Source: Ureibacillus acetophenoni (GTDB lineage: Bacteria; Bacillota; Bacilli; Bacillales_A; Planococcaceae). Taken from it: a DNA stretch of 64,000 bases. The position numbers were made by a program, and so were the translations under genes. Positions 9,481-51,120 of the stretch are shown here, piece by piece. The notes under the pieces were generated by a model. The model made no database searches, had not been told where the DNA came from, and saw only the letters and a program-made list of their open reading frames with translations. Position 1 is the stretch's first letter. Every line of letters begins with the position of its first letter. Location: assembly GCF_900220965.1 (NCBI RefSeq), contig NZ_OBQC01000006.1:62001-126000 (forward strand), given 5' to 3'.

Positions 9481-10344
9481 TTATCCACTTTGTCCTTTTG
9501 AAAATTTCGATTGAAACTTTTTAAATATCGACTTTTTTTGTTGATTTTGATTGCCATTTGAATTTTGCTTGTCTTGGGAATTTTGATTCCTCTTGGCGTT
9601 TTGATTACTTTGGGAATTCTGATTCCCGTTGGCATTTTGATTTCCTTGGGAATTCTGATTGCCGTTGGCATTTTGATTTCCCTGGGAATTTTGATTGCCA
9701 TTGGTGTTTTGATTTCCTTGGGAGTTCTGATTGCCATTGGTATTTTGATTTCCTTGGGAGTTCTGATTGCTATTGGAGATCTGATTGCCACTAGCATTTT
9801 GATTTCCTTGGGAATTCTGATTGCCATCGGTGTTTTGATTTCCTTGGGAATTCTGATTGTCATTAGCGTTTTGATTTCCTTGGGAATTCTGATTGCCATT
9901 GGCGTTTTGATTTCCTTGGGAATTCTGATTGCCATTGGCGTTTTGATTTCCTTGGGTATTCTGATTGCCATTGGCGTTTTGATTACTTTGGGAATTTTGA
10001 TTTCCATTAGCGTTTTGATTACTTTGGGAATTCTGATTGCCATTGGCGTTTTGATTTCCTTGGGAATTCTGATTGCCATTGGCGTTTTGATTTCCTTGGG
10101 AATTCTGATTGCCATTGGCGTTTTGATTTCCTTGGGTATTTTGGTTTCCATAGTAATTTTGATTAGTATTGATATTTTGATTACCTGTAGAGTCCTGATT
10201 TTCTTCTTGCACCTTCCATGGTGGATCTACATTTTTATGAATTTTTTGATTCCATTTGTGAATGCCATAAGGAATTGCAAATGCCAAAAAAGTACAAAAA
10301 AATGTAAAGAGAGTAGGAAAACGTTCCATTATTATTCTCATCAT
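9481..10344 (-). CDS. Membrane-anchored Asn/Gln repeat protein of the germination operon
   Basis: A 287-residue protein that I do not recognise as a family. A hydrophobic segment at about residues 8-27 is followed by a polar linker. About 200 residues of hexad repeats then alternate the GNQNAN and GNQNSQ types (12-residue period), before a basic tail (KKSIFKKFQSKFSKG). In DNA the repeat is a 36-bp tandem array. The start ATG overlaps the stop of the C-subunit gene as ATGA, with GGAG nine bases upstream, so it is translationally coupled to the receptor genes. Orientation across the membrane is not clear. The reading frame is chosen from this coupling, since two other frames are also open through the repeat. 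Confidence 0.75.
   Translation of the reverse strand: MMRIIMERFPTLFTFFCTFLAFAIPYGIHKWNQKIHKNVDPPWKVQEENQDSTGNQNINTNQNYYGNQNTQGNQNANGNQNSQGNQNANGNQNSQGNQNANGNQNSQSNQNANGNQNSQSNQNANGNQNTQGNQNANGNQNSQGNQNANGNQNSQGNQNANDNQNSQGNQNTDGNQNSQGNQNASGNQISNSNQNSQGNQNTNGNQNSQGNQNTNGNQNSQGNQNANGNQNSQGNQNANGNQNSQSNQNAKRNQNSQDKQNSNGNQNQQKKSIFKKFQSKFSKGQSG
9590..10150. repeat. 36-bp tandem repeat inside the germination operon
   Basis: About fifteen copies of a 36-bp unit, seen on the plus strand as alternations of TTTTGATTTCCTTGGG and ATTCTGATTGCCATTGGC. Copies differ by a few bases. Because the unit is a multiple of three and free of stops, three frames stay open. Such arrays often change copy number by slippage. 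Confidence 0.9.
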
Positions 10345-12619: not shown

Positions 12620-14445
12620 TTACTACTTTGACCTCCATCATTGATTTTTTTTATATCGTCTGTTTTCAAATATGGTGGACGTTTTGTTAGTGTCGTAATT
12701 GGTGCTCGTATAAGTAAATTTTTTAAGTCCCCTAAAAAATATGGCGCAAATGGTGATGAGTATGGAATACCCATACTTTTTAAATTCACTACATGAATCG
12801 CAAGCAATATAAATACAAGAATAATTCCGTATAGTCCTAAAATTGATGCTCCAATTAACAAGGCATACCGAATTACTCTAACAGCCATTGCCAAGCTATT
12901 ATTTGGGATTGTGAATGTTGCAATTCCAGTAAGAGATGTAACGATAACAGTTGCAGGTCCTACTATACCTGCACTAACTGCTACTTCTCCAATTACAATT
13001 CCTCCAACAATACCAATGGTAGCTCCAATAGCTTTTGGCATTCGAATCCCTGCTTCTTGTAAAATTTCAAATGTAACAGCCATTAATAATACTTCAACAA
13101 TTGCCGGAAAAGGTACGTTTTCCCTAGTTGCTGCAATTGAAAAAGTAAGTTGCGATGGAATCATACCAGGATGATATGCTATCAATGCTACATAAATAGC
13201 TGGTAAAAACACTGCAATAAATGCAGAAATATAGCGTAGAAACCTTAACAGTGATCCCAATAACCATCGTTGATTGTAGTCTTCAATTGAAAGTAACGCA
13301 TCCCCTAAAGTAATGGGTGTTATTAATCCAAAGGGACTTCCATCTACTAGAATTCCTATTTTTCCTTGGAGTATATTATATGTTAATCTATCGGGTCTTT
13401 CTGTATCTAAAATTTGTGGGAACGGTGAAAGAAAACTATCCTCTATCCATTGTTCAACAACTCCTGAATCAGGAGCAAAGTCAATATCAATTGTTTTTAA
13501 TCTTCGATTCACTTCATCCAAAATATCTTCATTGACTATACCAGCAACATAGCATACTGCAAGCTTTTGTTTGGAACGCCGACCAATTTCATGAATATCA
13601 AAGCGTAGATTGGGATCCTTAATTTCCTTACGGATTAAAGATAGATTCGTATTAATGTTCTCTACAAATCCTACACGTGATCCCCTAATGACGGATTCTG
13701 ATTGTGGTTCATCAATGGAACGTTTCTCACCACCGACAGTATCCATGATTAAAGTTGTTTGCTCACCATCTAAGATAAAGATCGAGTTACCAGACAACAA
13801 TGCAAATGATAATTCGTCTAAAGTCTTCACTTTCTTACTATCTGTAATAGCTATTACTTCTGTTAATATTTGGTCTAATAAAGTGGAATTAGACTGCGAG
13901 TTATTTGACTGTTCGTTACCTGACTGACTGTTTTGGGACTGATTATTGTTGTTTGATTGACTGTTTTGGGATTGACTATCGTTGTTTAATTGGCTATTGT
14001 TTGTCCCTTGATTCATTGATTTGTTGCTACTTGTTTGATTGTCACTTGATTGGGAATTGTTTGACTGCTCTTTATTGGATTGGTTGTTTTTCTGATCATT
14101 ACTTGATTGATTGCTATTGTTATTTGACTGATCTTTGTTTTGACTCGATTGAATCTTACTTGATTGAACTGCTTTTAATATATTGTTGTTTACTAGGTCA
14201 GAATTTGTAATTCCACTGATATATAAAATCGCACATTTCGTTTCTGTGCTACCAACTTTAGTTTCCCTAACGACTAGATCACTTGGATTACCAAGCATTG
14301 TTTTAATCGTTTCAATATTTTTCGCCAAATCTTTTTCGATTGTAATACTAAATTCTTCACCTTTATTATTTGGTGAATTGTTGTTATTTGTATTGTTATT
14401 TTTGGGCTTATTACTATTTCCTGTAAAAATATATCTCATGCTCAT
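12616..14445 (-). CDS. Germinant receptor A subunit with an Asn/Ser/Gln-rich insert
   Basis: A 609-residue GerAA-family protein, about 110-130 residues longer than the usual 480-500. The extra length is an Asn-rich N-terminus (about 10-30) and a Ser/Asn/Gln tract at residues 95-188, which interrupts the first cytoplasmic subdomain between TKCAILYISGI and LLDQILTEVIAI. The rest is standard: YVAGIVNEDIL, GSRVGFVENINTN, GKIGILVDGSPF and four to five C-terminal membrane segments. GerAA proteins are reported to form an oligomeric ion channel in spores. The start at 14445 is set by GGGAG eight bases upstream; the ATG at 14460 lacks a site. Long low-complexity N-terminal regions are also known in some A subunits such as GerIA of B. 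cereus. Confidence 0.93.
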   Translation of the reverse strand: MSMRYIFTGNSNKPKNNNTNNNNSPNNKGEEFSITIEKDLAKNIETIKTMLGNPSDLVVRETKVGSTETKCAILYISGITNSDLVNNNILKAVQSSKIQSSQNKDQSNNNSNQSSNDQKNNQSNKEQSNNSQSSDNQTSSNKSMNQGTNNSQLNNDSQSQNSQSNNNNQSQNSQSGNEQSNNSQSNSTLLDQILTEVIAITDSKKVKTLDELSFALLSGNSIFILDGEQTTLIMDTVGGEKRSIDEPQSESVIRGSRVGFVENINTNLSLIRKEIKDPNLRFDIHEIGRRSKQKLAVCYVAGIVNEDILDEVNRRLKTIDIDFAPDSGVVEQWIEDSFLSPFPQILDTERPDRLTYNILQGKIGILVDGSPFGLITPITLGDALLSIEDYNQRWLLGSLLRFLRYISAFIAVFLPAIYVALIAYHPGMIPSQLTFSIAATRENVPFPAIVEVLLMAVTFEILQEAGIRMPKAIGATIGIVGGIVIGEVAVSAGIVGPATVIVTSLTGIATFTIPNNSLAMAVRVIRYALLIGASILGLYGIILVFILLAIHVVNLKSMGIPYSSPFAPYFLGDLKNLLIRAPITTLTKRPPYLKTDDIKKINDGGQSSK

Positions 14446-15675: not shown

Positions 15676-15818
15676 AAGGACATTTTACTGTGATAGATAC
15701 AGTAAGATGTCCTTTATCGATGTTATTATAGACATTTTGAATGGATTTCCACACTCTAATGTCTTTTATAAACCCTCTTAAAGACATTTCCAACGGATCT
15801 TACCTCTCGAATGTCTTT
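15676..15818. repeat. Helically phased inverted-word array (AAAGACATT/AATGTCTTT)
   Basis: Six 9-bp words alternate in orientation. Forward words (AAGGACATT, ATAGACATT, AAAGACATT) begin at 15676, 15728 and 15780. Inverted words (GATGTCCTT, AATGTCTTT, AATGTCTTT) begin at 15706, 15758 and 15810. Both sets have an exact 52-bp period, while the bases between words are unrelated. The array lies between convergent sspH and ywdK. Neighbouring word pairs could also form hairpins in RNA. Confidence 0.85.
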
Positions 15819-15831
15819 TATACTCTAAAAT

Positions 15832-30186: not shown

Positions 30187-31875
30187 CTACATCTCTTCAG
30201 GTGCATGAATTCCTAATAGACGTAGTCCTTCATTTAAAACAACTTGAACGCAATACACTAGAGTTAATCTTGCTTGTTTTTGTTTTAAGTCATCAAGAAT
30301 ACGTACAGTCCCATAGTATTTGTTAAATGCTTTTGAAAGATCTAAAAGAAATTTTGCAATTTGGGATGGATCGTACTGTTCAAATGCACGTTTAATGACA
30401 TCAGGAAAGACCATTAATTTTGTAATAATTGACCATGCTTCACCATCTGTTAATGTGACAGCATCCAGATTTTCCTCGTATCCCCCTTTTCTTAAAATGG
30501 ATGAGGCACGTGCATGAGTATATTGAACATATGGACCGGTTTCCCCTTCAAATCTCAACATATCTTCAAGTGAAAATTCAATGTCATTTAAGCGATGATT
30601 TTTTAAATCATGGAAAATGACTGCACCCGTTCCTACTTGTCGAGCAACATCCTCTTTTGCATCAAGCGTCGGATTCTTTTCTTCTATATTTTCCTTGGCA
30701 AGGTTGATTGCTTCAGTTAACACTTCTTCTAATAAAACTACTTTCCCTTTACGAGTAGACATTTTTTTACCGTCTTTTAACATCATGCCAAAGGGAACAT
30801 GTTTCAGACCATTATGCCATTCGTAGCCCAGCTTTTCTAAGACAGTAAAAAGCTGTTTAAAATGTAGGGATTGTTCATTGCCCACAACATAGAATGACTT
30901 TTCGAATTTGTACGTTTCCTGACGGTAAAGAGCTGCTGCTAAATCCCGTGTAGCATAAAGAGTAGTCCCATCTTTCTTTGTAATTAAGCAAGGTGGTAAA
31001 TCGTCTCCGATTTCTACAATTTGTGCCCCCTCTGACTCTTGTAATAGATTCTTTTCTTTTAGTAACTGAACAACTTTATTCATCTTATCGTTATAGAATG
31101 CTTCCCCATTTGTTGAATCAAACTTAATCCCAAGTAGTTGATAGATTTTATTAAACTCTTTTAGAGATTCCTCTCTAAACCAATTCCATAACTTTAAAGC
31201 TTCTTCATTGCCATTTTCCAGGTTTTTAAACCAATGTCTTGCTTGATCATTTAGTTCTTCATTTTGTTCTGCTTCATCATGAAACTGTACATATAATTTT
31301 AAGAGTTCTTTTATCGGATTGTCTTGAACCTTTTCTTTGGTGCCCCACAATTTATAAGCAACAATTAACTTTCCAAACTGAGTTCCCCAATCACCCAAAT
31401 GATTGATTCTAACTACTTCATAACCACATTTTTCTGAAATAAGAGCTAAGGCATTCCCTATAACCGTTGAACGTAGATGGCCCATCGAAAAGGGTTTAGC
31501 AATATTTGGAGAGGAAAAATCAATCGTAATGACTTTTTTGTTTCCGATAGTTATTTCTCCATAATGTTCCTTTTTAGTAAGTACCTCTTTGATGACATTT
31601 GTTGAAACGACTCTTTTATTTAAAAATACATTTACAAAGCCACTAATTGCTTCTACATGTTGAAATGTATTAGACAATTGTAAGTTTTGAGCTAGGTCTA
31701 CAGCGATCTGTTGAGGCGACTTTTTGTAAATCTTCGCTAATTCAAAACATGGGAATGAAAGATCTCCCAGTTTATCGAACTTTGGTTTCTCAATCATACT
31801 TTCCAACTTACTTCTATCCGCAACTTCATGTAATTGACCAAATAATACTTCTGCAAACTCATGTTTATAGTTCAT
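30187..31875 (-). CDS. argS: Arginyl-tRNA synthetase
   Basis: A 562-residue class I synthetase that charges tRNA-Arg. The ATP-binding signature is SPNIAKPFSMGHLRS, the HIGH-like element of this group, and the KMSKS-like loop is KKMSTRKGKVV. The N-terminal Add1 domain and the C-terminal DALR anticodon domain (FEGETGPYVQYTHARAS to the end) are complete. The start at 31875 is fixed by AAGGAGG seven bases upstream. It sits behind a T-box leader, so expression should rise when uncharged tRNA-Arg accumulates. Confidence 0.95.
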   Translation of the reverse strand: MNYKHEFAEVLFGQLHEVADRSKLESMIEKPKFDKLGDLSFPCFELAKIYKKSPQQIAVDLAQNLQLSNTFQHVEAISGFVNVFLNKRVVSTNVIKEVLTKKEHYGEITIGNKKVITIDFSSPNIAKPFSMGHLRSTVIGNALALISEKCGYEVVRINHLGDWGTQFGKLIVAYKLWGTKEKVQDNPIKELLKLYVQFHDEAEQNEELNDQARHWFKNLENGNEEALKLWNWFREESLKEFNKIYQLLGIKFDSTNGEAFYNDKMNKVVQLLKEKNLLQESEGAQIVEIGDDLPPCLITKKDGTTLYATRDLAAALYRQETYKFEKSFYVVGNEQSLHFKQLFTVLEKLGYEWHNGLKHVPFGMMLKDGKKMSTRKGKVVLLEEVLTEAINLAKENIEEKNPTLDAKEDVARQVGTGAVIFHDLKNHRLNDIEFSLEDMLRFEGETGPYVQYTHARASSILRKGGYEENLDAVTLTDGEAWSIITKLMVFPDVIKRAFEQYDPSQIAKFLLDLSKAFNKYYGTVRILDDLKQKQARLTLVYCVQVVLNEGLRLLGIHAPEEM

Positions 31876-31893
31876 GTCATTCCTCCTTAAAAT

Positions 31894-32312
31894 AAAAAAA
31901 CTCCCGCCTCTTTTCATAAGAAAAGAGACGGGAGTTGTATTTTCCCGCGGTACCACTCTAATTGTTAATCAAATACGCCTCGGCGTATTTGCGCCCAGAT
32001 TTTATCGAGCTTGCTCGATAATTACCTTTAAAAAATCTGTGGCATCCGCCGGAGGCTTTAACTTCATTCATCTTACCACCTAATTAATATTTTAAACTTC
32101 TGTACCTATCGCAAGAGCTTTATTTGTACAAAACATCTGTTGAATGAAGTTATAACCACTCTATTTGATAACGAGGTTCACCCCGACTTTCCCTACTACA
32201 TTTTCAGGAAAGTATCTACAAAGTGCGCTTCATTATTTGATCCGTACTAGGCTTTCACTATCCCTAGCTCGCTTTACCTTTACAAATAACTACTCTCTTT
32301 GTCATCGATTTT
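31894..32312 (-). promoter_or_regulatory. T-box leader of argS
   Basis: On the minus strand the leader shows a stem I opening (GACAAAGAGAGTAG), an AGCGAGC...AAGCC loop region and the T-box sequence AGAGTGGTACCGCGG at 31945-31959. The terminator CTCCCGCCTCTTTTC with its complement lies at 31901-31934, followed by a T-run. A likely specifier is CGC (Arg) at 32225-32227, in the context GAAG-CGC-A. At about 420 nt it is much longer than usual because of an extra hairpin element. Confidence 0.9.
31971..32057. repeat. Multi-hairpin element embedded in the argS T-box leader
   Basis: An 87-bp block with three palindromic parts. AAATACGCC/GGCGTATTT lies at 31971-31990. TTATCGAGC/GCTCGATAA lies at 32002-32021 and is framed by CCAGATTTT and AAAATCTG. 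TCCGCCGGA lies near 32046. It lies between the specifier region and the antiterminator. The look is that of a dispersed hairpin repeat inserted into the variable linker. Confidence 0.6.
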
Positions 32313-32331
32313 TTATATTGTATTTCAATCA

Positions 32332-32359
32332 ATTATAGCCATTCATTACCAAATTTCAA
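32332..32359 (-). promoter_or_regulatory. Sigma-A promoter of argS
   Basis: On the minus strand TTGAAA, a 16-bp spacer and TATAAT, ending about 20 bp before the T-box leader. Confidence 0.75.
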
Positions 32360-32399
32360 GGATTTTTTTTCAATAAAATTGCATTCATAGGTTTCTTAT

Positions 32400-32634
32400 G
32401 AGCAACTTCAACTATGAATTGAGTAATTTTAGAACCCTAGGGATTTTTTGAGCAACTTTTGGGCGCTTGCGAGCAACTTTTATCTGTTTACGAGCAACTT
32501 TTATCTGTTTACGAGCAACTTCTTCATTTGCCGAATTTTATGAGCGACTTTCGGGAGTTTTCGAGCAACTTTCGGAACTTTATGAGCATTTTGATCGTGG
32601 AATTGAGCTACTTTCATGCACTTATGAGCAACTC
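32400..32634. repeat. Helically phased direct-word array (GAGCAACTT)
   Basis: Eleven copies of a 9-bp word (GAGCAACTT and near variants such as GAGTAATTT, GAGCGACTT and GAGCTACTT). They begin at 32400, 32421, 32450, 32471, 32492, 32513, 32542, 32563, 32584, 32605 and 32626. Steps are only 21 or 29 bp. The 12- or 20-bp spacers differ almost everywhere. It lies 3' of the metX-like gene. Confidence 0.88.
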
Positions 32635-32650
32635 TCCCTCCACACCAACA

Positions 32651-32690
32651 AAAAATCAGCCCTACCAAAGAGCTGATTTTTGATTTTTCA
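32651..32690 (-). terminator. Terminator of the metX-like gene
   Basis: Ten-bp stem AAAAATCAGC/GCTGATTTTT directly after the stop codon at 32700; T-rich on the minus strand. Confidence 0.8.
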
Positions 32691-32699
32691 TTATATATA

Positions 32700-33767
32700 T
32701 TATTCTGCAACTGCCTCTGCAACATTAATAGCAAGCAGTTCATTTAAGTAGTTATCTACTTGCGTAAAGTAATCTGGTTCCACGCCAAAGAGTCCGAAAT
32801 GACCTAGTAAACTATTAATTACTTTTAATTCACTGTTTGGAATTAGTTTTTGTTCTGCCTCACAGTCACGTACTGGGAAGAACATGTCTTCATTAAGTGG
32901 CATGACAAATACTTTAGCTTTAATGCGACCAAGAGCCTCTTCTAGATTACCATTCGTATGACGACTCACGTCACCTCTTTGCCATTTCCAAGCCATTGTA
33001 AGTAATGAATTCGGATCTAAACTTTGGAATAATGGTTGTAAAAAGCCTTCAGTAAATTGTTCTACCGTTTCAATTCCAAAGAGCTTCCACCCTTCTTGCT
33101 TGTAGAATTCTGTACTTAACCCCATCACAGCCCAAATATCTGCATGTCTCTTTAAACCATCCGCTACATCGAAATGAGACGAATAGTTTCCACCATTCCA
33201 TCCTGGGTCAGACGTAATCGCATCCATTAAAGTTTTCGTAAATAAGAAGTCATGTACTGTGTTTTTAGCTGTACCTGCAATTGGCGCTGCACGTTTTACC
33301 ATATCTGGGTAACGAACTGCCCATTCATATGTTTGCTGCGCTCCCATAGATCCACCGACAACTAATGCAATTTCTTCAATTCCAAATTTCTCTGTAATTA
33401 ATTTGTGTTGTGCTCGCACATCATCGCCGATTCGAACATTCGGGAAATTTGCCATAGCAATCGGCTCTGGGCTGTTATGAGGTGAACTAGAAACACCATT
33501 ACCAATTTGATTGATCACGATAATAAAGTACTTCTCAGGATTTAACGCTCTGTCCTTGCCGATATAAGATTCATAGTTTTTACTTGTCCCAGAAAACCAA
33601 GTAGGAACGACAATCACATTATCTTTTGCTTCATTTAACGTTCCATGAGTAGTATAAGCTAGCTTTAAATCTGGAATGATGCCACCATCTTCTAATTCAA
33701 AATCTCCTAAATTATAAATTTCAAAAGGCCCAACATTTTCTTGCGAATAGAAATCGTTTTGAATCAT
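32700..33767 (-). CDS. MetX-family alpha/beta hydrolase (homoserine acetyltransferase-like)
   Basis: A 355-residue alpha/beta hydrolase of the MetX group. The nucleophile elbow is GGSMGAQQ (Ser140). A distal GHFGLFG carries the catalytic His at about 323, and an Asp lies in the preceding NEDMFFPVRD strand. The LAYTTHGTLN and QIGNGVSSSP blocks match the family. True homoserine O-acetyltransferases carry further conserved residues that I cannot confirm here, so acyl acceptor and reaction stay open. GGTGG precedes the ATG. No methionine gene is adjacent. Arrays of short repeats lie on both sides. Confidence 0.85.
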   Translation of the reverse strand: MIQNDFYSQENVGPFEIYNLGDFELEDGGIIPDLKLAYTTHGTLNEAKDNVIVVPTWFSGTSKNYESYIGKDRALNPEKYFIIVINQIGNGVSSSPHNSPEPIAMANFPNVRIGDDVRAQHKLITEKFGIEEIALVVGGSMGAQQTYEWAVRYPDMVKRAAPIAGTAKNTVHDFLFTKTLMDAITSDPGWNGGNYSSHFDVADGLKRHADIWAVMGLSTEFYKQEGWKLFGIETVEQFTEGFLQPLFQSLDPNSLLTMAWKWQRGDVSRHTNGNLEEALGRIKAKVFVMPLNEDMFFPVRDCEAEQKLIPNSELKVINSLLGHFGLFGVEPDYFTQVDNYLNELLAINVAEAVAE

Positions 33768-33975
33768 TAACTATTTCCACCTTTCGATATAAATTAAGAT
33801 GACTGAATTTGAAATGTGCTTCTACTATAATTTTAGAATTATATGAGGCTTAAGTCTATGACTATTACTGTCGAAAAATACCGGCTCTAAAGGATCTAAA
33901 TACTCTTGTCTTTTAAAGGGTCATGTTAGGGGACATTTCTTTTTGGATTCTCAATTTCTTGACTAGGTAATAGGT

Positions 33976-34498
33976 TTGCGTGACAGATTTTTTTGATACA
34001 CCTACTTTTTGTCATGCAAATTGATTTTGCGTGACAACTTTCTTTGATCTCCCTACTTTTTGTCATGCAAATTGATTTTGCGTGACAACTTTCTTTGATC
34101 TCCCTACTTTTTGTCATGCAAGTTGATTTTGCGTGACAACTTTCTTTGGTTCAACTACTTTTTGTCATGCAAGTTGATTTTGCGTGACAACTTTCTTTGG
34201 TTCAACTACTTTTTGTCATGCAAGTTGATTTTGCGTGACAACTTTCTTTGGTTCAACTACTTTTTGTCATGCAAGTTGATTTTGCGTGACAACTTTCTTT
34301 GGTTCAACTACTTTTTGTCATGCAAGTTGATTTTGCGTGACAACTTTCTTTGATCTCCCTACTTTATGTCATGCAAATTGATTTTGCGTGACAACTTTCT
34401 TTGATCTCCCTACTTTATGTCATGCAAGTTGATTTTGCGTGACAACTTTCTTTTGGGTTCAACTACTTTTTGTCTTGCATATCCATTTTGCGTGACAC
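33976..34498. repeat. 51-bp array of inverted words (TTGCGTGACAA/TTGTCATGCAA)
   Basis: Eleven copies of TTGCGTGACAA begin at 33976, 34027, 34078, 34129, 34180, 34231, 34282, 34333, 34384, 34435 and 34488. All steps are 51 bp except the last, which is 53. Each is preceded by TTGTCATGCAA about 18 bp upstream, its inverted partner with one G-T mismatch. Spacers alternate between two forms (TTTGATCTCCC and TTTGGTTCAAC). It fills most of the 780-bp gap between the metX-like gene and the TPR gene. Confidence 0.92.
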
Positions 34499-34550
34499 TT
34501 TTATTCAGGTTCCTAATTTCTTGTCTAACAACAACCTTTTACGGAAACTA

Positions 34551-35036
34551 TTACTTCCACACTTCATCCAACTTATCGGAATAAAATTCAATAGCCCTTT
34601 TATATTTTAAAATTTCATGATCCGTAGTCGTCTCGATTAAGGATTTTAGTAATATTTCCATTGCTTTGCCGTGTTCATTCAAGTTATATAACGTCATTGA
34701 ATAAAACACCTGCATCGCTCTATTGTTAGGAAATTGCACTACGCCCTGTTGAAATACCTGCTTAGATTTTTCATACTCACCTAGAGTACGATATGTACTT
34801 CCCAATCCTAATAAAGCTCCTTCTAATTCTCCTTTTGGTAACCCTAAACGAATTGCCTCTACATAATAAGGAACTGCTTTTCCTTCTTCTCCCAATAAAT
34901 CGAAACTCCATGCACATTGATAATTGATAGATGCATTCGTTGGATATTTTTCAATTAGTTTTATAAGTACTTCATTGGACTCTTTGTGGTTTCCACTTTG
35001 TCTTAAATTGAGTGCTTCCTTTAGTTCATTTTCCAT
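34551..35036 (-). CDS. Tetratricopeptide repeat protein
   Basis: A 161-residue soluble protein with about four TPR-like helix pairs, for example residues starting KEALNLRQSGNHKESNEVL and LGSTYRTLGEYEKSKQVFQQ, then YNLNEHGKAMEIL. Such proteins act as protein-protein adaptors; the partner is unknown. GGGGAG eight bases upstream of the ATG supports the start. It is monocistronic and followed by the 51-bp repeat array. Confidence 0.85.
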   Translation of the reverse strand: MENELKEALNLRQSGNHKESNEVLIKLIEKYPTNASINYQCAWSFDLLGEEGKAVPYYVEAIRLGLPKGELEGALLGLGSTYRTLGEYEKSKQVFQQGVVQFPNNRAMQVFYSMTLYNLNEHGKAMEILLKSLIETTTDHEILKYKRAIEFYSDKLDEVWK

Positions 35037-50904: not shown

Positions 50905-51120
50905 TTATTAGAAAAAATTGACCACTTATTAGACAATTCACAGAAGTTATTAGACAAAATCAAAATTTTATTAGACATTCCCATGAAAGTTGCCCCCCGA
51001 GAAGAAGTTATTAGACAAATCGGAACACTTATTAGACAATCCACGGGAGTTATTAGAAAAAGTTAAGGCATTATTAGAAATTCCACTTTAAAGTAGCTCC
51101 TCACGCTGAGGATATTAGAA
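50905..51120. repeat. Helically phased direct-word array (TTATTAGAC)
   Basis: Nine copies of TTATTAGAC or TTATTAGAA (the last is ATATTAGAA) begin at 50905, 50926, 50947, 50968, 51008, 51029, 51050, 51071 and 51112. Steps are 21, 21, 21, 40, 21, 21, 21 and 41 bp. The 12-bp spacers have unrelated sequences. It lies 3' of a GNAT gene and fills the 300-bp gap. Confidence 0.88.

What the first reader, a model, noticed from the sequence alone, without database searches (positions are those of the whole stretch)
32400..32634. Array of a 9-bp word repeated at steps of exactly 21 or 29 bp, with variable spacers
Eleven GAGCAACTT-type words have start-to-start steps 21, 29, 21, 21, 21, 29, 21, 21, 21 and 21. 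The intervening 12 or 20 bp do not match one another, except for two identical neighbouring spacers. Words are conserved, spacer length is conserved and spacer sequence is not, so this is not simple slippage of a tandem repeat. A step of 21 bp is two turns of B-DNA and 29 is close to three, which puts the words on one face of the helix. I infer a set of sites for a DNA-binding protein that packs cooperatively. It lies directly 3' of a gene.
Basis: partly seen in the sequence, partly recalled or inferred. Interest (0 to 1): 0.85.

Follow-up and report, generated by a model that had tools for sequence, protein, structure and literature searches.

The report
Nuclease genes paired with DNA-word arrays
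The odd run of repeated nine-letter DNA words is one of about a dozen such runs in this bacterium's genome, and runs of words like these stand beside a family of putative DNA-cutting proteins whose words differ from protein to protein, which points to an undescribed partnership of protein and DNA word in Bacillus-like bacteria.

Summary
The array is real: 11 GAGCAACTT-type words at steps 21/29; chain of 11 against at most 2 in 2000 shuffles. It is one of 12 dispersed arrays of this word in the genome. Between arrays words are shared and spacers are no more alike than chance. The two largest arrays lie directly 3' of NERD-domain (PF08378) genes. Of 64 NERD genes with a C-terminal zinc-ribbon motif, 57 have an array in their flanks; controls: 0 of 15 other NERD genes without the motif (two disrupted ones set apart), 38 of 205 ordinary genes in this array-rich genome, 15 of 293 in three others. 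Protein phylogeny separates 20/21-bp direct-word arrays from 51/52-bp inverted-pair arrays; related proteins tend to have related words, weakly overall. Within the genus, arrays of this word were seen only in genomes holding one NERD clade or its remnant, plus a vestige in an incomplete genome. Best reading: sequence-specific NERD proteins with cognate word arrays, REP/RAYT-like in logic, unrelated in parts. Binding, cutting and function are inferred. The papers searched do not describe it; one lists NERD as a putative CRISPR-linked gene.

The parts
32400..32634 (.). GAGCAACTT word array (11 words, steps 21/29); GAGCAACTT on +, AAGTTGCTC (the sense read beside the NERD genes) on -
32651..32681 (-). 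terminator-like hairpin after the metX-like gene; the array lies just beyond it
   Evidence: 13-nt arms, 92% complementary
32700..33767 (-). metX-like acyltransferase gene; the array lies 3' of it. G010 has an array at the same site, G016 a vestige, G004 and G005 none
   Evidence: the name metX is my reading of the sequence, no family search was made
30187..31875 (-). argS-like gene (arginine-tRNA ligase); start at the ATG at 31873-31875 is my reading, the listed ORF runs to 31956
   Evidence: one DNA match annotated argS
31921..32314 (-). T-box leader
   Evidence: RF00230, 102.1 bits against 93
33975..34501 (.). second word array: 51-bp units with TGACAA and TTGTCA words in inverted orientation; same words (GCGTGACAA, TTGTCATG) as the array 3' of NERD gene L197 of this genome
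50905..51084 (.). third word array: TTATTAGA words at steps 21,21,21,40,21,21,21; no NERD gene with this word found in this genome (orphan)
15692..15827 (.). fourth, weaker array at lag 52 with TGTCTTTTATA / TAAAGACA type words
   Evidence: 55 of 84 matches

Best explanation
The array is a dispersed target-site array of a chromosomal protein-and-word system. The protein is a NERD-domain (PD-(D/E)XK-type) nuclease-like protein with a C-terminal zinc ribbon and a putative helix-turn-helix tail. Paralogues recognise different short DNA words. Words stand in arrays beside the protein's own gene and at other intergenic sites: at two-turn (20-21 bp) steps in one part of the protein tree, as inverted pairs every 51-52 bp in one clade. 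Shown here: the arrays; the association of ribbon-NERD genes with arrays; period following protein clade, and words doing so in part; co-occurrence of this word's arrays with one NERD clade inside the genus; unrelated spacers between arrays. Inferred: that the protein binds the word; that it nicks or cuts there; that this activity (unequal exchange, conversion, copying of words) drives array growth and spread, so that it works like the REP/RAYT pair with a different enzyme. A host-useful role is possible and not excluded.
For: 12 arrays of one word in this genome (81+50 pattern matches against 4+4 for the reversed control). Spacer cores between arrays near-identical in 0.18% of 11,731 pairs against 0.23% expected, within arrays 12.2% of 1,635. 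Ribbon-NERD genes with an array: 57 of 64, against 38 of 205 control genes in array-rich G000, 15 of 293 in G022+G013+G046, and 0 of 15 NERD genes without the motif. The 52-bp class is one side of one branch, 1 change against 16.8 in shuffles, 0 of 500 (four labels set by hand). Nearest protein is first or second in word similarity in 23 of 36 genes; Mantel rank correlation 0.16, p 0.001. D and K in all 36 rows, E in 94%; four invariant Cys in 27 rows. Nine loci have arrays on both sides, with the same word. The matching NERD clade (55-61% identity) is found only in G000 (two), G010 and as a remnant in G022 of 25 genomes; exact GAGC pairs only in G000 and G010; GAGC arrays 3' of RNase J only in G000, G010 and G022 of 24 genomes. 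Two further words are commonest where NERD genes with those words were known. Also seen in named genomes of three NCBI families.
Against: No binding or cutting data; the structure model was useless (pLDDT 34), so the HTH tail is read from sequence by eye. The word-protein correlation is weak, and in 7 of 36 genes the nearest protein's word ranks 17th or worse of 35. Seven of 64 ribbon-NERD genes have no array over threshold. GAGCAACTT-type arrays also occur in Planococcus chinensis, Sporolactobacillus, Evansella and Chryseomicrobium, whose NERD genes I did not show to belong to the L036 clade; the P. chinensis protein beside its array is only about 30% identical to that clade. The TTATTAGA word has no NERD partner in this genome. 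The vestige in G016 has no matching NERD gene there, in a genome 76% complete. Relatedness of genomes confounds the co-occurrence counts. G022 showed one word array in 200 kb of sampled sequence, so wide dispersal is not general. Methanosarcina sp. Ant1 has a similar 21-bp array and no NERD match.
Confidence: 0.7

Rival explanations
1. Host-useful chromosomal marks: the arrays are polar sites read by the NERD proteins for chromosome handling (segregation, replication restart, repair), and selection for that role keeps words and orientation.
For: In two dnaA-started chromosomes 11 of 13 array clusters with TCGCAA/TCGCAC words point with replication, two of them beside NERD genes (clusters grouped by me from the full lists for G013 and G004; replichores from GC skew and dnaA). 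In G000 the word sense agrees with both flanking genes in 9 of the 11 GAGC arrays that lie between co-directional genes. Array sites persist at two orthologous loci in G000 and G010.
Against: Of five TCGCAAATA places checked in G000, two point against their neighbours. Other genomes do without: G046 (no NERD) 0 word arrays in 200 kb, G009 (no match to the ribbon-NERD query L212) 0 in 50.5 kb, apart from weak coding-like hits. Word numbers vary wildly: 405 TCGCAARTA pairs in G000, none in 17 of 25 genomes.
Confidence: 0.22
2. Anti-phage or anti-mobile-DNA system: NERD is the effector and the genomic arrays act as self marks, sponge or activator.
For: Weak matches of some of these proteins to PglW, MkoA, HEC-02B and MAD6 models.
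Against: Those matches are far below NCBIfam cut-offs and cover only the NERD part. L036 has no plasmid match and one partial phage match. The L037 locus is syntenic with the G022 remnant: same GntR-like neighbour.
Confidence: 0.12
3. RNA-guided, CRISPR-like arrays: words are repeats and spacers are guides.
For: Conserved words with variable spacers. Altae-Tran et al. 2023 report non-CRISPR arrays with hypervariable spacers and name NERD in a figure legend on putative CRISPR auxiliary genes (PMC10910872, section 15 and passages).
Against: About 7 free bp per unit and spacers duplicated within arrays; one clade has inverted words every 51-52 bp; in G000 roughly 30 word arrays in 400 kb sampled (by eye).
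Confidence: 0.03
4. Ordinary tandem-repeat slippage with no protein partner.
For: Higher-order units (81-113 bp) are duplicated within arrays, so slippage or unequal exchange does act.
Against: Does not explain one word at 12 loci with unrelated spacers, the NERD association or period by clade.
Confidence: 0.03

Closest known systems
REP/REPIN elements and their RAYT transposases
   Same: A single-copy chromosomal enzyme gene flanked by its own short repeat; the repeat dispersed between genes; several enzyme-repeat pairs in a genome; repeat class assigned by proximity to the enzyme gene; abundance tied to presence of the cognate enzyme (PMC3686654 abstract; PMC3116915 passages)
   Different: Enzyme is a NERD-type protein with zinc ribbon, not a tyrosine (Y1) transposase; class A words are direct and not palindromic; regular arrays of many words at 20-21 or 51-52 bp; spacers locus-specific
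NERD domain family PF08378
   Same: NERD domain well over the Pfam cut-off in the three proteins scanned (47.6-59.6 bits against 22.1); D...E-x-K motif kept
   Different: C-terminal zinc ribbon plus putative HTH, and a word array beside the gene; the 15 intact-looking NERD genes without the motif had no array
CRISPR arrays, and the non-CRISPR hypervariable-spacer arrays of Altae-Tran et al. 2023 (PMC10910872)
   Same: Regular word-spacer arrays near a nuclease-like gene
   Different: Very short units, arrays also far from the gene, no guide-length spacers; cas genes were not searched for
Plasmid iterons, and polar chromosome sequences such as KOPS/SRS (recalled, no call)
   Same: Two-turn direct words; possible orientation with replication
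   Different: Chromosomal, many loci, different words for different paralogues, partner is NERD

Membership tests
NERD domain (PF08378) | Match over Pfam gathering score | tested here: met
   L036 59.6, L037 47.6, L102 55.9 bits against 22.1; for the other genus loci
NERD domain (PF08378) | D...E-x-K nuclease motif retained (motif recalled) | tested here: met
   D and K in all 36 class A rows, E in 94%; D81 and K96 invariant, E94 at least 90%, 27 rows
REP/RAYT | Repeat flanks the enzyme gene and is dispersed elsewhere | tested here: met
REP/RAYT | Enzyme is a RAYT (Y1) transposase | tested here: not met
   in the three proteins scanned only PF08378 matched at E up to 0.1
REP/RAYT | Repeat is a short palindrome | tested here: not met
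   chosen class A words have no inverted copy in the flank except L211; the 51/52-bp class does have inverted word pairs
CRISPR-Cas | Guide-length unique spacers | tested here: not met
   about 7 free bp per unit; spacers duplicated within arrays
CRISPR-Cas | cas genes nearby | not tested
   flanking ORFs were listed but not scanned for cas
Known anti-phage defence system | Match to a PADLOC or NCBIfam defence model | tested here: not met
   7 proteins, only weak partial matches
Sequence-specific DNA-binding protein | Binds the word | not testable with these tools
   zinc ribbon by invariant cysteines and weak ribbon matches (best E 0.069); HTH by eye

The most novel reading that the evidence does not exclude
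A widespread, undescribed class of bacterial genome-shaping system: multi-paralogue NERD-zinc-ribbon nucleases, each reading its own DNA word, that plant and maintain arrays of that word between genes, perhaps oriented with replication, across at least three families of Caryophanales (Bacillales), with word specificity diversifying in step with the protein.
Probability: 0.5. Interest if true: 0.95.

Novelty: categorically new. Interest (0 to 1): 0.88.

Why it matters
In the 31 papers listed for the NERD domain (listing only) I saw no function for this ribbon-bearing group; the best hit concerns another NERD protein, SmdA of Staphylococcus. Here dozens of paralogues come with their putative target written next to the gene. 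That makes the recognition code directly testable, offers a natural set of diverged DNA-reading nuclease-like proteins, and would give a second, independent case of the REP/RAYT kind of partnership between an enzyme and its dispersed words.

Tried and rejected
Coding reading: 21 bp is 7 codons and gives EQL heptads, but the 29-bp steps break the frame. Rfam on 31400-34700: only the T-box. Plasmid search of the array: none. Viral contigs with L102 and L036: two pattern hits each, no relative. Folding of L102 without an alignment: pLDDT 34, not used.

Rows dropped or set by hand: the three-word cluster on the window minus strand at 246-293 and the pair at C35 (no array in L040) taken as chance; L236 (521 aa) left out of the tree; in the tree labels L201 (period 103 made of 21-bp steps), L227 and L232 (score 49) were set to '21' and L255 (62 in a 171-bp flank) to '52'; by the strict threshold they are 'other103', 'none', 'none', 'short', as counted in the 57 of 64. 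L102 is in the 57, but its automatic label rests on neighbouring repeats; its true array is five words at 21-bp steps. L036 lacks the N-terminal stretch of L212 behind an in-frame stop. In one search, 18 of 20 ribbon-NERD genes of five named genomes pass 50 (L340 is the L102 gene again); I distrust L331 and L340. Of the other 7 NERD hits, 4 had a match to the profile but no ribbon motif (1, L323, has an array) and 3 had no match and were not examined. Whether hits in the random samples are word arrays or coding repeats was judged by eye. My notebook gives the G016 vestige steps 21,21,29,21; the recount gives 21,21,28,19 with decayed words. The G009 sample was meant to be 200 kb but its first contigs are short: 50.5 kb, three weak hits (51-53) that look coding. 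L244 has its 5' array in the reverse orientation.

Full report
OBSERVATION. A chain of 11 words at 21/29 steps is far outside chance: 2000 dinucleotide shuffles gave at most 2. The array lies between a metX-like gene (minus strand, with a terminator-like hairpin) and the T-box leader of argS.

IT IS DISPERSED. In the 3.98-Mb genome (G000, 39 contigs) the 21-bp word pair with up to 3 mismatches occurs 131 times against 8 for the reversed control. Most of the listed matches fall into 12 arrays at 12 intergenic places, steps of 21 with occasional 29 and a few others such as 18, 20, 22 and 30; the largest have 35 and 30 words. Arrays at different loci share the word but not the spacer: 0.18% of 11,731 between-array spacer pairs are near-identical against 0.23% expected from composition, while 12.2% of 1,635 within-array pairs are. 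So arrays grow locally by duplication, and something acting in trans keeps the word the same (inference).

THE PARTNER GENE. The two largest arrays (L037, L036) and the short one found in Planococcus chinensis (L102) lie directly 3' of NERD-domain genes. I examined 83 NERD loci: 62 from 11 genomes of the genus, 20 from other genera of the family, chosen among hits of 320-400 aa open frame, and L102. These are part of the NERD genes listed, not all. A scan for self-similarity at lags 9-70 over 69 loci (60 of them NERD loci) gave mostly lags 52, 21, 51 and 42. With a C-terminal zinc-ribbon motif: 66 proteins; 57 have an array in the 1.2 kb after or 0.9 kb before the gene, 7 do not (two of these score 49 and one 46 at lag 21, one has 216 bp of 3' flank), 2 had too little sequence. 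Without the motif: 17; 15 have none, and the two with arrays are a gene with in-frame stops (L199) and a disrupted one read as a 100-aa fragment (L221). Control genes of at least 200 aa, same flanks and threshold: 38 of 205 in G000, 1 of 86 in G022, 13 of 102 in G013, 1 of 105 in G046 (Fisher tests: p 6e-25 against G000, 7e-44 against the other three, 3e-11 against ribbonless NERD; G013 alone 2 of 3, p 0.05). In this genome all 7 ribbon-type NERD genes found with the class A profile (4 class A; 3 class B, one of them interrupted) have arrays; the two further NERD matches are of other types, and the one examined (L196) has none.

WORDS AND ARCHITECTURE. Words differ between paralogues, for example AAGTTGCTCATAA (L036), TCGCAAATAAA (L200), TCGCACGTAAA (L234), AAAGTGGCTAGATT (L239), TGTCCTATAGA (L215), read in gene sense; sister genes and orthologues share words (L036 and L037; L306 and L313; L234 and L243). 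On a quick tree of 65 ribbon-NERD proteins (SH-aLRT only) the 52-bp class is one side of one branch with support 100 (1 change, shuffled mean 16.8, 0 of 500). In the 51/52-bp class words stand in inverted pairs; window 33975-34501 is an example, and its words match those beside NERD gene L197 of the same genome. Among 36 class A genes the nearest protein is first or second in word similarity in 23, and 17th or worse in 7; the overall correlation is weak (0.16, p 0.001). Irregular steps look clade-specific: 29 in the L036/L037/L212 clade, 18-19 in L200/L234/L243/L249, 40 in L201/L209. Nine loci have arrays of the same word on both sides of the gene.

CO-OCCURRENCE. In 25 genomes of the genus, exact GAGC pairs occur only in G000 and G010; NERD genes of the matching clade (58-61% identity to L212) only in G000 (two) and G010, with a broken remnant in G022 (55%). 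Beside the G022 remnant stand four GAGC words at 21-bp steps, next to the same GntR-like gene as L037, and six more words 3' of its RNase J gene. Of 24 RNase J orthologues (G020 has only a paralogue), those of G000, G010 and G022 have GAGC arrays 3' of them; the other 21 show 0 or 1 word. At the metX site, present in 5 of 25 genomes, G000 and G010 have arrays, G016 a decayed one without a matching NERD gene (76% complete genome), G004 and G005 none. These genomes are related, so these are not independent trials. For two other words I expected, before searching but without a note, high counts where a NERD gene with that word was known: TCGCACGTA pairs (up to 1 mismatch) are 63 in G004 and 30 in G003 as expected, and 1, 0, 5, 0 in G000, G007, G010, G022; also 36 in G002 (its L238 is in that protein clade), 19 in G005, 14 in G001, 13 in G016 and 5 in G024, where I had no word beforehand. 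TCGCAARTA pairs are 405 in G000 and 30 in G013 as expected, at most 10 elsewhere, none in 17. Reversed controls are 0 throughout. These counts include the arrays beside the NERD genes.

GENOMES WITHOUT. G046 (no NERD match) shows no word array in 200 kb, and G009 (no match to L212) none in 50.5 kb, apart from coding-like hits; G022 has one in 200 kb, G013 about four, G000 about 30 in 400 kb (sorted by eye).

RANGE. The P. chinensis genome coincides with G106 of the window's own family by identical coordinates and score, so the family is that of Planococcus (inference). Ribbon-NERD genes with arrays occur in named genomes of Caryophanaceae (Planococcus, Chryseomicrobium), Sporolactobacillaceae and Bacillaceae (Evansella): 18 of 20 genes in five genomes pass the threshold, two of them doubtful. 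L036 has no plasmid match and one partial phage match.

MECHANISM. The protein has a conserved D...E-x-K motif, four invariant cysteines and a conserved tail that I read as a helix-turn-helix (ribbon matches are weak). The simplest account is that the tail reads the word and the NERD domain acts on DNA there. Nicking or cutting in an array would promote the local duplications seen and could spread words; this is inference. Arrays with TCGCAA/TCGCAC words point with replication in 11 of 13 clusters of two dnaA-started chromosomes, 9 of 11 without the two beside NERD genes. In G000, 9 of 11 GAGC arrays between co-directional genes agree with those genes, but of five TCGCAAATA places only three do. 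This is a hint of a replication-linked process, no more.

COMPARISON AND NOVELTY. The closest logic is REP/RAYT (PMC3686654 abstract; PMC3116915 passages). Membership fails on enzyme type and on the palindromic repeat. Altae-Tran et al. 2023 (PMC10910872; section 15 and passages read, supplement not) describe non-CRISPR arrays and name NERD among putative CRISPR auxiliary genes, which may be a glimpse of this association. Searches of the paper library showed no description of NERD genes with word arrays; most subscription papers are not in that library.

AFTER CHECKING. Two odds were lowered because of facts added on re-reading: best explanation 0.72 to 0.70 (GAGC-type arrays in other families without a shown clade match), chromosomal-mark rival 0.25 to 0.22.

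Noticed in passing
window 50905-51084; L286 about 2877; L295 about 14490: TTATTAGA (TTGTCTAATA) arrays with 21-bp steps; window and L295 show a 103-bp higher unit. No NERD gene with that word found in this genome; the word differs by two letters from TTGGCGAATA of NERD L201.
   Followed up: partly
L283:4433, L284:10266, L286:3151 and 7093 in G000; L434:3643 and L436:16168 in G004: A different intergenic repeat family (GGTACCAGGTAC / CAGAATTGTTTGTGTACC type, lags 34-108), unlike the NERD words.
   Followed up: no
L199, L221, L429:2406-2956: Interrupted or fragmentary NERD genes (stops inside; remnant in G022) that still have a word array beside them.
   Followed up: partly
L096 (Methanosarcina sp. 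Ant1): 21-bp array of GAGYAACTT words in an archaeal contig whose genome has no NERD match; chance, misbinning or another system.
   Followed up: no
window 9544-10164 and 13921-14113: 36-bp and 33-bp repeats inside ORFs, probably repetitive proteins.
   Followed up: no
46 class A array flanks: Irregular steps (18, 19, 29, 30, 39, 49) are 1-3 bp short of whole helical turns, as if resetting a drift of 21-bp steps; steps 12, 22, 23, 32 and 44 go the other way (R 0.58, 22 votes, not independent).
   Followed up: partly
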